NCBI GenBank assembly: GCA_010671905.1
Contig: JAAHII010000001.1
Location: 6,658,026 to 6,722,025, forward strand
Length of the DNA: 64,000 bases
Reading direction: 5' to 3'
Source of the DNA: Leptolyngbya sp. SIOISBB
Lineage (GTDB): Bacteria; Cyanobacteriota; Cyanobacteriia; Phormidesmidales; Phormidesmidaceae
Position 1 is the stretch's first letter. The number at the start of each line of letters is the position of its first letter. Made by a program: the position numbers and the translations under genes. Positions 5,177 through 51,407 of the stretch are shown here, in pieces. The notes under the pieces are model-generated. The model saw only the letters and a program-made list of their open reading frames with translations. It was not told the origin of the DNA and did no database searches.

Positions 5177-5431
5177 TTATCTTATCCCATAACAGACTTC
5201 TATACTTTCTAAACCGGGAATAATACTGATGTATTTCGGACATTCTATCCAAATAAAGCCCTCTTCAATCAACATGGCACAGTTTTGAACGCTCACTGGC
5301 TCAGGCAGAGAACATTCATACCATCGAAAGCCATTTGAAAATTGACGTAGGAATTCCGGAAGATTGTATAGCTCTTCATGGGTAAATCGAAAACTTACTA
5401 AAGCAGATAAATTTATACTCACTACTCTCAC
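5177..5431 (-). CDS. Small hypothetical protein, possibly immunity-like
   Basis: An 84-residue ORF with ATG start and a mix of aromatic and acidic residues (for example FRWYECSLPEP and GFIWIECPKY). It looks like a small globular alpha/beta protein. No family is recognised. Its size, acidity and AT-rich context resemble immunity or antitoxin genes, but that is only an impression. It is followed on the same strand by the 65-residue ORF. Confidence 0.4.
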   Translation of the reverse strand: MRVVSINLSALVSFRFTHEELYNLPEFLRQFSNGFRWYECSLPEPVSVQNCAMLIEEGFIWIECPKYISIIPGLESIEVCYGIR

Positions 5432-5980
5432 CTTTTAAACATAACGTTGAAGCTGAGCGGCGGTCAGTATTTTTGCATCAAAATCGACATCACTTATGCC
5501 GTCCGATCCTGCGTAGAGTTAGGCGTCATCATTATACGTGTTTCAGTAGTTTGTCATATTCAGAATACGTTCCAGTCCAAAATCAATAGAGATGTTTACT
5601 TTCCAGCAATCCTAATGCTCTGTAATTGAGACTGAAACGGATTGAACGGACTGAATAGATTGACTGATACTAATTCACTCGTTTGAACTGAAGATTTGGG
5701 TGATATGGATCCGGGCTACATCATTCTCTGGCTGCAGAAATATAGCCGAGCTGATTGTTCAGATGAGACCGACGAGCATCGGCAAACGGAAGGAAATGAT
5801 TCGGCATTGGAAAATGAACGTTTGCTTCAAGAATTCACAGCTTAATCCGAACTTAAAGTCAGGTTTATGTGGATTGAATGATTGAAGTCTAATCTCTAGA
5901 TAGATTCATCTAGACATCTATATATAAGTGTTTAGTCTTTGTCTAGGTCATAGCATTTACGGATCATTCCACTCTGAACG
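5432..5980. other. AT-rich intergenic region upstream of the importer operon
   Basis: About 550 bases without a convincing gene; two short ORFs on the plus strand have no codon signature. It must contain the promoter of the ABC operon that starts at 5981. AT-rich segments such as TCTATATATAAG near 5919 could supply a -10 region, but no clear -35/-10 pair stands out. Confidence 0.4.
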
Positions 5981-15095: not shown

Positions 15096-17708
15096 ATGGC
15101 CACCAGCCCCGGTCTCATCGCCAAAAAGCCCATCTCGGTATGGAACAAACCGCTGAAGGCCAACTTCAAAGACCTCTTCAAAGCGTTGGGCAAAGCGGGG
15201 GTGGATACGGCAACAGGGCAGTGGATTGGCCTGGGCAAAGATACTGTGGATGCGCTCTCAGCCATTGGTCTGGAAAGCAACGAGCCGGAAGAACTCACCT
15301 GGGCGCTGATTTATAACTCGCTGACCAAGGCCATGGGCAGCATTATTAGCGACAGCCAGTTTTTGATGCAGGATATTCCGGCTGATCTGGATGGGGTGAG
15401 TGACAGCTTAGATTTATCGCTGGAGTCTCAGGAGCTGGAAATCTCCAGTCGTTTTTTTGAGCATCCGGAGCAGTTGCCAGTGCTTGCAGCCCTCAAAACG
15501 CCGCTTCGGCAGTGGCTGCAGGTGTTTGGCATTGAGCCCTATCAAGCGGAAGTGTTGAGCAATCGCCTGCCGACTTACTTTGTCTTTGCGCTAAATCAGG
15601 AATGGCGACGCGGGGCTCAAGACTATGCCCGCATTACCGCTGCGGTGCAGACGCCCTTTACCGCAGCGAGTGAACGCGAACATGGCTGGTGGCTTTACAA
15701 CGCTTGGCTGCAAAAGCAGATCCAAGAGCCGATGCTGTTTGAAGCGTTTGGCCTGGAAGAGGTCTATGTGCCGTTGCGAGGCTACTATCGCCGTAAGGGC
15801 AAAGGTAGCGCTGACGGTGAGGATGACTTTGTCGCTGAGCCTCACTCTGGCAGTCGCGAGCAACATATTCGGGTAGTGGTAGAGCTAGCAGCCTGTTTGC
15901 GACAGTGGCTGCAAACCGCCGACAAAAACGATGCCATCCGCATCATTAGCGGGGGGCCAGGTTCCGGCAAGTCCTCCTTTGCTAAAATCTTTGCCGCCCA
16001 CCATGCGGCCACGGCTGCCTTTCCGGTGCTGTTTGTGCCGCTGCACCAGTTCAACCCGGCGGGCGACTTGATTAAAGCAGTGGAAGAGTTTGTCCGCTAT
16101 GACGAATATCTCAAAGACAACCCCCTCGACCCGGATGATGAAAATTTGCGGCTGTTGGTGATTTTTGACGGGCTGGATGAGCTGGCACTGCAGGGCAAAC
16201 TGGCCAAGGAAGTGGCCCAAGAGTTTGTTCGTGAGGTGCAGAGCAAAGTCAGCCGCTTTAACTATCGCAAGACCCGCCTGCAGGTGCTGATCACCGGGCG
16301 CGAAGTGGCGGTGCAAGAATCCTTTAAAGAGCCGCAGCAGGTGTTGCATGTGCTGCCGTACTTTGTGCCCGAAGAGGCGCGGGAAAAGGAAAATGGTGAA
16401 CCCTATTTAGACACCGCTCAACAGTTGGCCCATGACCAGCGCCATGATTGGTGGCAAAAATATGGCGCAGCCACCCAACAGCCCTATACCGCCATGCCGG
16501 AAGCACTCGACCGGGGTAATCTGACAGAGATTACCGCGCAGCCGTTGCTGAATTATTTGGTGGCGTTGAGCTATGTGCAGGGCAAGCTCACGCTCACTGC
16601 CGAGACTAATCTGAATACGGTGTATGCCGACCTGCTGAATGCGGTGTATGAGCGGGGCTATGAAGATAAACGCCGCCATGTGGCCATTGGCGACATGTCC
16701 AAAGCGCACTTTGTGCGAGTGCTGGAAGAAATTGCCCTAGCGGCCTGGCATGGGGATGGTCGCACCACCACGGTTGAAGAGATCGAACGGCATTGCACCA
16801 GCAGCGGCCTGCAGCGGCTCTTGGAAACCTTTGAAGAAGGGGCCAAGGCCGGGGTAACCCGCCTGCTTGCAGCGTTTTATTTTCGGCAAAGCGGCGTGAA
16901 GGGCAATGAGCGCACATTTGAATTTACTCACAAGAGTTTTGGCGAATATTTGACCGCCTGTCGTATTGTGCGGGCGATGGAGCGCATTCAAAAGCAACTC
17001 GATCGGCGGCAGGAAGATATGGAAGAGGGCTGGGATGAGCGCGAGGCCCTGCTGCACTGGGCAGAGGTCTGCGGCCCCACCCGCATGGATAAGTATCTGC
17101 TGAGCTTTTTGCGCGCCGAAGTCGCCCTTCAAAATCCTGAGCAGGTGGCAAATTGGCAGCAAACCTTTGCGCACCTGATTGGGGTGATGCTGCGACAAGG
17201 CATGCCGATGGAAAAAGTAGAGCCGCCGTTGAAATTTCAGCAGGCGAATCAGTGGGCTATCAATGCGGAAGAGGCGTTACTGGCTGTCCTCAATGCCTGT
17301 GCGTTAATCACGCAAGTTGTCTCAACAATTGTCTGGCCCAGCCAAGAGGCTTTTAGCGCTTGGCTCAAACGACTGGAAGGGCAACGAATTGACGCAGTTA
17401 ATGTTGTCGCTCTTGAAAGCCTCAGTCAACTCGATTTAGATAGAACTATTCTTGACTTTCAAGATTTGTATGGAGCACACCTTCATGGAGCGCGCCTTAA
17501 GAGGGCGCAACTTTATGGAGTATGCCTTGATCGGGCGAGTCTTAATCGGGCGCGTCTTGAGGGGGCGCGTCTTGAGGGGGCGCGTCTTGAGGGGGCTGTT
17601 CTCACTGGCATCTCTTGGGATGAAGACACTAACTGGGAAGGTGTCACAGGGCTGGAGTCGGCCATTAATGTGCCAGAGGCGCTAAAGCAGCAGTTGGGGC
17701 TGGAGTAA
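15096..17708 (+). CDS. NACHT-type STAND NTPase with C-terminal pentapeptide repeats
   Basis: The protein has 870 residues. Residues 1-280 are an unassigned helical region that may hold an effector or adaptor. A NACHT NTPase follows with Walker A GGPGSGKSS near residue 286 and Walker B VIFDGLDELA near residue 355, where the double acidic pattern typifies NACHT. A helical region reaches about residue 780. The C-terminus has about ten pentapeptide units of the A(R/H/S)L type. STAND NTPases oligomerise on sensing a ligand, and bacterial NACHT proteins include anti-phage proteins. The sensor here would be the helical region plus pentapeptides. It appears monocistronic. Confidence 0.88.
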   Translation: MATSPGLIAKKPISVWNKPLKANFKDLFKALGKAGVDTATGQWIGLGKDTVDALSAIGLESNEPEELTWALIYNSLTKAMGSIISDSQFLMQDIPADLDGVSDSLDLSLESQELEISSRFFEHPEQLPVLAALKTPLRQWLQVFGIEPYQAEVLSNRLPTYFVFALNQEWRRGAQDYARITAAVQTPFTAASEREHGWWLYNAWLQKQIQEPMLFEAFGLEEVYVPLRGYYRRKGKGSADGEDDFVAEPHSGSREQHIRVVVELAACLRQWLQTADKNDAIRIISGGPGSGKSSFAKIFAAHHAATAAFPVLFVPLHQFNPAGDLIKAVEEFVRYDEYLKDNPLDPDDENLRLLVIFDGLDELALQGKLAKEVAQEFVREVQSKVSRFNYRKTRLQVLITGREVAVQESFKEPQQVLHVLPYFVPEEAREKENGEPYLDTAQQLAHDQRHDWWQKYGAATQQPYTAMPEALDRGNLTEITAQPLLNYLVALSYVQGKLTLTAETNLNTVYADLLNAVYERGYEDKRRHVAIGDMSKAHFVRVLEEIALAAWHGDGRTTTVEEIERHCTSSGLQRLLETFEEGAKAGVTRLLAAFYFRQSGVKGNERTFEFTHKSFGEYLTACRIVRAMERIQKQLDRRQEDMEEGWDEREALLHWAEVCGPTRMDKYLLSFLRAEVALQNPEQVANWQQTFAHLIGVMLRQGMPMEKVEPPLKFQQANQWAINAEEALLAVLNACALITQVVSTIVWPSQEAFSAWLKRLEGQRIDAVNVVALESLSQLDLDRTILDFQDLYGAHLHGARLKRAQLYGVCLDRASLNRARLEGARLEGARLEGAVLTGISWDEDTNWEGVTGLESAINVPEALKQQLGLE
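17545..17598 (+). repeat. Tandem 15-bp repeats encoding pentapeptide units
   Basis: Near-identical 15-base units of the form CGTCTTGAGGGGGCG occur three to four times in a row at the 3' end of the NACHT gene, preceded by diverged units. The identity at DNA level suggests recent expansion of the pentapeptide array. Confidence 0.8.
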
Positions 17709-50501: not shown

Positions 50502-50585
50502 AGAGTTTTGAGAACTAAGTTGGATGATTGGTAGCGACGGCGCATATCAATTTAGGCAACAATCGTTGCGACTCCGCTGTAGCAG

Positions 50586-51107
50586 CTACGCGACAGCATC
50601 CTTGTCTAAGTTCTCGCGACGCAGTTCGTCGAAATCAACCGCGTCTTTGTCCAGATTTTCACGACGCAGTTCATCAAAGTCGATGCCTTTTGCCAGCACT
50701 TCATAGACGGCGTCTTTGTCTAGATTTTCGCGACGCAGTTCATCAAAATCAACCGCGTCTTTGTCCAGGTTTTCGCGACGTAGCTCGTCGAAGTCGATGC
50801 CTTTTGCCAGCACTTCATAGACGGCATCCTTATCCAAGTTTTCGCGACGCAGTTCATCAAAATCGATGGCGTCTTTTTCGAGGTTTTCACGACGTAGCTC
50901 GTCGAAGTCGATGCCTTTGACCTGAATTTCATAGACGGCATCTTTGTCTAGATTTTCGCGACGCAGTTCGTCGAAATCAACCGCATCTTTGTCGAGGTTT
51001 TCACGGCGCAGTTCATCAAAATCGATGGCGGCTTGAGTTGCAGGGGCAACAGCGATCGCGGCGGCGGAAATCGTTAACACGGAAAGAGCAATTGCAAAGC
51101 GTTTCAT
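50586..51107 (-). CDS. Secreted tandem-repeat protein (eight DFDELRRENLDKDA units)
   Basis: The 173-residue precursor has a signal peptide (MKRFAIALSVLTISAAAIA, cleavage near ATQA-A). The mature part is made only of repeats: eight copies of (V/I)DFDELRRENLDKDA. The second, fourth and sixth copies are extended by VYEVLAKG-type residues, so the higher-order period is 38 residues (114 bp). It is highly charged, acidic, has no Cys and is probably helical with short strands. The family is not recognised with certainty; LRREN-type repeats may recur in cyanobacterial secreted proteins. It could be a surface, matrix or ion-binding protein. It appears monocistronic. Confidence 0.8.
   Translation of the reverse strand: MKRFAIALSVLTISAAAIAVAPATQAAIDFDELRRENLDKDAVDFDELRRENLDKDAVYEIQVKGIDFDELRRENLEKDAIDFDELRRENLDKDAVYEVLAKGIDFDELRRENLDKDAVDFDELRRENLDKDAVYEVLAKGIDFDELRRENLDKDAVDFDELRRENLDKDAVA
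50590..51040. repeat. Tandem DNA repeats (114-bp higher-order period)
   Basis: Four near-identical units of about 114 bp, each with two copies of a 42-45 bp subunit, underlie the repeat protein. Third-position differences between copies show that the protein repeat is held by selection while the DNA drifts. Confidence 0.8.
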
Positions 51108-51407
51108 AGTGAGAACTCCTTTCAGTCAGTTGACTGATTCATCTTGAGTTCTATCGTGCGGGAAACTACTGAGAGGGCTCTGACCTGAAAATAAGCAGAG
51201 CTTAATGGGTTCCTGAGAAAACTGAGGAGATGAGTGGAAAGCGCCTGGGTAAATGACTGAAGCAGCGGCTTGACTGACAAAAATGGTGTTCTACATCGTT
51301 GAAATGCTGCCTGGTCAATCCATCAAGCAGATTCAAAGGGAGTTAGTCAGATGGCATCGCGATCGCAGTCCGCACAACCTGGACTGACCATGATCTGTCT
51401 GTTCCCG
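51108..51407. other. Intergenic region, no gene seen
   Basis: About 300 bases between the repeat-protein start and the aldo/keto reductase end. It holds the promoter of the repeat-protein gene. AGGAG-like AGGAGTTCTC precedes that gene on the minus strand and is a good ribosome site. No other structure was recognised. Confidence 0.45.

What the first reader, a model, noticed from the sequence alone, without database searches (positions are those of the whole stretch)
50586..51107. Secreted protein built entirely of DFDELRRENLDKDA repeats
After a clean signal peptide the mature chain is eight 15-residue units in a 38-residue higher-order pattern, with only V/I and D/E swaps between copies, while the DNA copies differ at third positions. 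The repeat has alternating acidic and basic residues and no Cys. This strong conservation at protein level implies a repeated binding or assembly role (surface layer, matrix, ion or polysaccharide binding). I do not recognise a characterised family.
Basis: partly seen in the sequence, partly recalled or inferred. Interest (0 to 1): 0.7.

Follow-up and report, generated by a model that had tools for sequence, protein, structure and literature searches.

The report
Peptide word exported by two routes
Some cyanobacteria encode apparently secreted proteins made almost only of copies of one short peptide, and also put the same peptide behind a leader for a separate export pump, and the two versions change together between lineages, which points to an undescribed secreted self-matching system.

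Summary
In detail: window 51107..50586 (-) encodes a 173-aa protein with a Sec-like signal peptide and eight 15-residue units. Synonymous sites between units are saturated (pS 0.82) while pN is 0.026.

It is one of nine Sec-type paralogues in its genome. A tenth gene puts the same units behind a double-glycine leader, divergently beside an NHLP/NHLM peptide-export cassette.

The pairing recurs with four unit types (A-D) in three cyanobacterial families. In the window's family, unit type agrees in 20 of 20 genomes where my scan found both classes. Two expectations held: a genome with a type-C double-glycine peptide had a type-C Sec protein; type-D double-glycine peptides were found beside cassette genes in five genomes of a family where Sec-D proteins had been found first. 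Sec genes share an upstream array of TCAG-like boxes about 11 bp apart (60 of 96 genes; 6 of 902 control ORFs).

Function is inferred. Homotypic extracellular assembly is my best guess; peptide signalling and toxin/decoy are live rivals. No paper in the searched library contains the unit strings tried.

The parts
50586..51107 (-). Sec-type unit protein (type A), 173 aa plus stop
51030..51107 (-). Sec-like signal peptide, residues 1-26 (MKRFAIALSVLTISAAAIAVAPATQA); cleavage site inferred by eye, no predictor run
   Evidence: sequence
50982..51026 (-). unit 1 IDFDELRRENLDKDA
50937..50981 (-). unit 2 VDFDELRRENLDKDA
50913..50936 (-). spacer VYEIQVKG
50868..50912 (-). unit 3 IDFDELRRENLEKDA
50823..50867 (-). 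unit 4 IDFDELRRENLDKDA
50799..50822 (-). spacer VYEVLAKG
50754..50798 (-). unit 5 IDFDELRRENLDKDA
50709..50753 (-). unit 6 VDFDELRRENLDKDA
50685..50708 (-). spacer VYEVLAKG
50640..50684 (-). unit 7 IDFDELRRENLDKDA
50595..50639 (-). unit 8 VDFDELRRENLDKDA
51116..51122 (-). ribosome-binding site AAAGGAG
   Evidence: sequence
51150..51158 (-). -10-like element (CACGATAGA here; CACTATAGA in many paralogues)
   Evidence: alignment of upstream regions; inference
51169..51226 (-). conserved promoter array CTCAGTTTTCTCAGG..ATTAAG..CTTATTT..GTCAG..CTCAG, boxes at 9-12 bp spacing
50585..51231 (-). block shared with the other paralogue loci of the same genome: CDS plus about 125 bp upstream only
   Evidence: blastn of ten own-genome loci

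Best explanation
SHOWN BY SEQUENCE: the window gene is the Sec-signal member of a matched pair of products built from one 15-18-residue peptide unit. One partner is a family of Sec-signal concatemers (2-14 units by my regex). The other is a short double-glycine precursor whose cores are 1-3 of the same units, often beside an NHLP/NHLM export cassette (C39-peptidase ABC transporter, second ABC subunit, short HlyD-like protein, cyclic-nucleotide-domain protein). The unit sequence differs between lineages but agrees between the two classes within a genome or genus. INFERRED: both are secreted, meet outside the cytoplasm and recognise each other or a common partner through the unit. The mechanism I think most likely is homotypic assembly: the concatemer forms or decorates an extracellular or cell-surface scaffold (sheath or biofilm matrix), and the short peptide seeds, caps or fills it. 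Many of the Sec genes are probably switched on together by a response-regulator-type activator binding the TCAG array.
For: Paralogues: own genome, 9 Sec-type and 1 GG-type proteins. In the eight GG precursors of A1 the core is whole units that end at the stop codon. Cassette: TIGR03896, TIGR03796 and TIGR03797 over cut-off at L079 and L077; TIGR03796 and TIGR03797 over cut-off at L271. By motif scan a C39-ABC gene lies in 18 of 34 stretches around GG genes, and at least one cassette gene in 25 of 34. Matching: 20 of 20 concordant (12 A/A, 8 B/B); within type A the own-genus pairing is reached or beaten in 8 of 720 permutations; within type D in 1 of 24, the observed pairing itself. Type C, GG to Sec. 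Type D, Sec to GG beside cassette genes in 5 genomes. Promoter array: 60 of 96 Sec genes against 6 of 902 control ORFs. Each unit is constrained on its own: pS 0.82, pN 0.026, as expected if one misfit unit spoils packing (inference). In types B and C, and many type-D proteins, units abut without a conserved spacer or cleavage motif that I could see, which favours an uncut multivalent chain. Precedent: in Synechococcus elongatus the C39-family PteB is implicated in secretion of EbfG1-4; EbfG4 is at the cell surface and in the matrix, and EbfG1-3 form amyloids (PMC9981879, passages read).
Against: No experiment shows secretion, assembly or interaction. AlphaFold gave no confident fold (mean pLDDT 49, pTM 0.14; helical tendency only). 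19 of 39 f1 genomes with Sec-type proteins had no GG partner detected; G032 has GG without Sec (a second 'GG only' row, G028, is a regex miss and does have Sec). G016 and G035 have Sec-A proteins and a C39 cassette gene, but my scan found no unit peptide near it. 9 of 34 GG stretches show no cassette gene, 5 (all genus g2) only the HlyD-like one, 2 are cut by contig ends; G059's cassette lacks the second ABC gene in the contig seen. 36 of 96 Sec genes fail the array test, and some Sec genes were found through the array, so that count is partly biased. The generic array's only exact hit in the own genome is not on a Sec gene (L312). No GG precursor was found in most type-D genomes searched. Relatedness among genomes limits the statistics.
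Confidence: 0.38

Rival explanations
1. Polyprotein signal: the Sec concatemer is cut outside the membrane into the same peptide that NHLM exports singly, so both feed one extracellular signal (a bacterial analogue of tandem-repeat pheromone precursors).
For: Same unit in both routes. In type A the 8-residue spacer occupies the place that a second GG leader occupies in the tandem GG precursors of G000 and G003 (AVYEVLAKG against AVSDAALEGVAGG). Lineage-specific matching resembles signal-receptor specificity.
Against: No conserved processing site seen: spacers vary (YEVLAKG, VELQVKG, YEVVAA) and are often absent in types B, C and D. No receptor identified or searched for.
Confidence: 0.2
2. Toxin and decoy: the NHLM peptide is a bacteriocin-like effector and the Sec concatemer in the periplasm is a matched decoy that protects the producer by presenting many copies of the recognised unit.
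For: The cassette models are named for bacteriocin export. GG genomes nearly always carry Sec (20 of 22 by script, plus G028 by reading), whereas Sec occurs without detected GG in 19 f1 genomes, as orphan immunity genes do. Unit type is matched.
Against: The unit protein is strongly acidic (51 D+E against 27 K+R), unlike the cationic peptides typical of membrane killers (recalled). Little diversification within a genus. No target known.
Confidence: 0.18
3. Hydrophilic stress or ion-binding protectant: secreted charged helices that protect the envelope in drying or salt, or bind cations; the GG peptide is an incidental relative.
For: Highly charged, Cys-free, helical in a low-confidence model. 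EF-hand_5 score below cut-off.
Against: 2% Gly and no DxDxDG loop (sequence). Does not explain matched unit types in two export classes.
Confidence: 0.12
4. Neutral or selfish repeat expansion without function.
For: Multicopy and dispersed, with some interrupted copies.
Against: Saturated synonymous and near-zero nonsynonymous divergence between units; conserved promoter; for the window copy the shared block is gene plus promoter only.
Confidence: 0.02

Closest known systems
NHLP/NHLM peptide export systems (TIGR03794, TIGR03796, TIGR03797) and cyanobacterial 'bacteriocin' clusters
   Same: GG-type partners have a double-glycine leader and, at L077, L079 and L271, sit beside C39-peptidase and second ABC subunits over curated cut-offs. 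Haft 2010 (PMC2887384) and Wang 2011 (PMC3140520) describe such clusters (passages read).
   Different: The two precursors tested do not match NHLP or N11P leader models at E 0.01. The HlyD-like gene is short and matches only the first 55 of 421 positions. A Sec-exported concatemer of the same core is not in the passages I read.
EbfG matrix microproteins / PteB of Synechococcus elongatus
   Same: Cyanobacterial GG proteins with a C39-family transporter implicated in their secretion (PMC9981879 passages).
   Different: The window protein lacks the A-[FI]-N-I-[GS] hotspot named there (sequence); the passages I read mention no Sec-exported partner.
TIGR02953 pentapeptide MXKDX repeat protein
   Same: Small protein with charged repeats; 33.2 bits, E 3.7e-8. 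That the family has a signal peptide is recalled.
   Different: Below the 41-bit cut-off; different repeat; the match covers residues 5-58, that is signal peptide plus the first two units.
Multi-core RiPP precursors such as microviridins
   Same: Several cores in one precursor (PMC5934393, search listing only).
   Different: Here the concatemers carry Sec-like signals, and I recognised no modification gene beside the GG genes (ORF starts read only).

Membership tests
NHLP/NHLM export substrate (for the GG partner) | double-glycine leader motif | tested here: met
   A1 (8 rows) and A3 (6 rows); GG columns invariant
NHLP/NHLM export substrate (for the GG partner) | adjacent TIGR03796 C39-peptidase ABC and TIGR03797 ABC over cut-off | tested here: met
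   L079, L077, L271; other loci by motif only: C39 gene in 18 of 34 GG stretches
NHLP/NHLM export substrate (for the GG partner) | TIGR03794 HlyD fusion protein | tested here: not met
   L079 74.9 and L077 69.9 bits against cut-off 156.2, only positions 1-55 of 421
NHLP or N11P leader families (TIGR03793, TIGR03798) | leader domain match | tested here: not met
   no match at E 0.01 for the L079 and L077 precursors; NF038167 24.1 bits below 32 for L077. Model numbers from PMC2887384
TIGR02953 MXKDX repeat protein | score over 41 bits | tested here: not met
   33.2 bits
EF-hand proteins | Pfam gathering score and DxDxDG loop | tested here: not met
   PF13202 21.7 bits below 25.9; loop absent in sequence
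Hydrophilin/LEA-like | more than 6% Gly (definition recalled) | tested here: not met
   3 of 147 residues
EbfG-like matrix proteins | extracellular assembly into fibrils | not testable with these tools
   needs purified protein
Modified RiPP | cognate modification enzyme | tested here: inconclusive
   none recognised among ORFs around GG genes by reading starts; no profile search for such enzymes was run

The most novel reading that the evidence does not exclude
Cyanobacteria use one peptide 'word' delivered outside by two independent secretion machines (NHLM and Sec). The word drifts between lineages while both carriers stay matched, forming a lineage-specific extracellular self-recognition or self-assembly code under a shared TCAG-array promoter.
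Probability: 0.45. Interest if true: 0.9.

Novelty: new variant of a known kind. Interest (0 to 1): 0.75.

Why it matters
Marker genes of such cassettes are widespread in cyanobacteria (TIGR03896 over cut-off in 28 of 95 genomes), and what many of them export is not known (recalled). A matched Sec-signal partner, recognisable by unit sequence and often by promoter, gives such exporters a concrete partner, a candidate regulon marker and a testable function in sheath, matrix, signalling or competition.

Tried and rejected
Known-family search: Pfam and NCBIfam gave only sub-cut-off matches, the best being DUF7348 at 22.9 bits (cut-off 27) and TIGR02953 at 33.2 (41). Viral contigs: 9 pattern stretches, none confirmed. 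Plasmids: no match. Phages: one weak hit, LR756502, 37.5% identity, not followed. AlphaFold on 16 sequences: no confident model, so no fold search was made. Unit neutrality rejected. A mobile-cassette reading was rejected for the window copy because shared DNA stops at gene plus promoter; L040, L045 and L046 share longer flanks, not followed. Paper searches: unit strings 0 papers; listings were judged by title and abstract start, and three papers were opened for passages.

The ninth array site in the own genome (G000:C1:601849) has no unit ORF downstream. Array hits L304-L308, L310 and L312 have no repeat ORF, L300 no clear ORF, and L309 has a secreted-looking ORF without repeats. Array hits in G010 and G020 precede ORFs with similar N-termini; the G010 one matches NB-ARC and NACHT.

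Full report
OBSERVATION. The ORF at 51107..50586 (-) encodes 173 residues: a Sec-like signal peptide (by eye), then eight 15-residue units in four pairs separated by three 8-residue spacers. The DNA period is 114 bp. The eight units differ only by V/I at position 1 and one D/E, yet all 15 codons vary at the third position. Pooled over 28 unit pairs, pS is 0.82 and pN is 0.026. The repeats are therefore old and each copy is held by selection on the protein.

FAMILY IN THE OWN GENOME. The window lies at G000:C1:6658026-6722025 of an 8.34-Mb genome. My unit scan reads nine Sec-type proteins and one of another class. A blastn among ten own-genome loci shows that for the window copy the shared DNA is 50585-51231 only, that is CDS plus about 125 bp upstream. 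Eight of the nine Sec genes carry the same upstream array; the pattern search gave nine matches in the genome, eight of them on Sec genes, and none for the reversed pattern.

SECOND EXPORT CLASS. L042/L077 (G000:C1:523462) and its counterparts carry the same units behind a double-glycine leader (LSDDQLKDVSGG); the eight precursors aligned stop directly after the units, while those of L108 and L110 have a short tail. In G000 and G003 the precursor is leader-core-leader-core. These genes lie divergently beside a cassette. At L079 and L077 the cassette proteins score over cut-off for TIGR03896, TIGR03796 and TIGR03797 and below it for TIGR03794; at L271 TIGR03796 and TIGR03797 are over cut-off. 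A motif scan of 34 stretches with a GG unit gene finds a C39-ABC gene in 18; in 2 more (L090, L380) the contig ends after other cassette genes; in 5, all of genus g2, only the HlyD-like gene is there; in 9 no cassette gene is seen, some of these being short contigs.

DISTRIBUTION. With the window protein, 28 of 95 genomes match at E 0.001, all in the window's family f1. One of these, G011, is a weak 3e-4 match that I do not count. Named carriers in genome contigs include Oscillatoria sp. CS-180, Halomicronema MAGs, Nodosilinea, Leptolyngbya RL_3_1 and Shackletoniella (28 loci).

A SECOND UNIT TYPE, FOUND THROUGH THE PROMOTER. The array occurs in 17 of 95 relatives, all in f1. Two of them (G007, G009) had no hit to the window protein; there the array precedes Sec proteins with a different unit, IQATRLEHLDNQSKAVDD (type B). 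Double-glycine peptides with the same type-B unit had already turned up in genera g2 and g13. Searches with both type-B classes (their match lists are capped), followed by a unit scan of the fetched loci, give for the 57 f1 genomes: GG and Sec 20, GG only 2, Sec only 19, neither 16 (Fisher p 0.004, not corrected for relatedness). One of the two 'GG only' genomes, G028, has a Sec protein that my regex missed (L093); the other, G032, has none detected. Typing each class from its own units, the 20 genomes with both give 12 A/A and 8 B/B, no mismatch. Within type A, GG units are closer to the Sec units of their own genus (0.718 against 0.693; 8 of 720 permutations reach this). Within type B there are only two genera (1 of 2 permutations), which tells nothing.

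TWO EXPECTATIONS. (1) A type-B GG search hit one genome of another family, G059, whose GG precursor carries three units LSGxSxExFxxGLGNK (type C) beside a cyclic-nucleotide-domain, a HlyD-like and a C39-ABC gene; the second ABC gene is not seen before the contig ends. I then expected a Sec protein with that unit in G059; this was not written down before the search. It is there: a MKRFFTAALS... signal peptide followed by ten units, with three TCAG boxes 11 bp apart upstream; G083 of the same family has a relative. 29 genomes were searched; 2 matched. No GG precursor was seen in G083. (2) A generic array, YTCAGN6GTCAGN6YTCAG, matched 35 of 388 class genomes (83 places by my count of the list); the reversed control gave 6 hits in 5 genomes. 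In family f24 it precedes Sec proteins with unit L[NS]xRFxxxRxxTLNA (type D). I noted the prediction of matching GG peptides before searching. 19 of 32 genomes matched at E 0.1 (30 of f24 plus two f1 controls, both negative), and GG precursors with type-D units were read in five: G118, G195, G201, G259, G283, all beside cassette genes, two of the five cassettes being cut by contig ends. Four of these five also have Sec-D proteins; none was found in G283. Over the four genera the true pairing of GG and Sec units is the best of 24 permutations (one Sec set per genus, some from a sister genome).

The unit types look like one diverged family: type D in genus g56 reads RFDEARRENLDK, close to type A DFDELRRENLDK, and G195 carries LTDRHQDEFNDGLKR, between types D and C (by eye, no profile test).

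PROMOTER. In an automatic count, a chain of three or more TCAG or TAAG boxes spaced 9-12 bp lies within 190 bp upstream of 61 of 98 Sec genes; counting genes with the same last 100 bp upstream once, 30 of 51 type-A, 19 of 23 type-B, 2 of 2 type-C and 9 of 20 type-D (60 of 96), against 6 of 902 other ORFs in the same loci. Some type-B and type-D genes were found through the array, so their share is biased upward. In the own genome the array has CTTATTT in place of one box, so its genes do not match the generic pattern; the single exact generic hit there lies in another gene (L312). The spacing of about one helical turn suggests a winged-helix response regulator; this is inference, and no regulator was identified. 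The eight GG genes examined have a different conserved element, TTTTTTCAGGCAGACA or close variants, near -67.

MECHANISM. What the data support directly is a matched pair of products with export signals. What the pairing does is inferred. I favour homotypic extracellular assembly because each unit is individually invariant, units often abut without a visible cleavage motif in types B, C and D, and GG proteins are matrix components in S. elongatus (PMC9981879, passages read). The asymmetry (GG nearly always with Sec, Sec often without GG) fits a scaffold with an accessory short peptide, but also orphan immunity in a toxin/decoy scheme. The type-A spacer at the place of a second leader is the best hint for a polyprotein signal. 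Structure prediction was uninformative.

COMPARISON. The GG partner belongs near NHLP/NHLM export systems (Haft 2010, PMC2887384; Wang 2011, PMC3140520; passages read), but the two leaders tested do not match the NHLP or N11P models and the HlyD-like gene is short. The window protein fits no curated family of the two libraries tried. The library holds no paper with the unit strings tried. Wang's supplementary precursor list was not readable here, so single GG precursors may be listed there; in the passages I read I saw no mention of a Sec-exported partner.

Recounts changed the array count from 61 of 98 to 60 of 96, the unit range to 2-14, and replaced 'mostly beside a cassette' by the counts above.

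Noticed in passing
L077 7845-8423, L079 7850-8437 and counterparts: The HlyD-like gene of these NHLM cassettes is only about 190 aa and, in the two tested, matches just positions 1-55 of 421 of TIGR03794: a short adaptor.
   Followed up: partly
L377 17607-18944, L379 7456-8820, L380 7814-9172, L381 4116-5447: A protein of about 450 aa with similar N-termini lies on the other side of the type-D GG gene in four of five loci (not L378); the three tested are AAA_35 proteins. L267 has a 1471-aa WD40 protein near its GG gene.
   Followed up: partly
L184 (G010:C1239) and L200 (G020:C621): The TCAG array precedes ORFs with similar N-termini and no units; the one tested (L184) matches NB-ARC and NACHT models.
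   Followed up: partly
G000:C1:601849-601888: An array copy with two mismatches and no unit ORF downstream; possibly a dead copy.
   Followed up: partly
G000:C1:6655339-6655584 (L043): A shorter three-unit Sec paralogue without the array lies about 2.4 kb before the window start.
   Followed up: no
window 17526-17596: A 15-bp tandem array CTTGAGCGGGCGCGT, 4.7 copies.
   Followed up: no
L279 (G051:C116) 5261-5467: GG peptide beside an NHLM cassette with a single MERFREMRRENRDK-like unit, intermediate between types A and D by eye.
   Followed up: no
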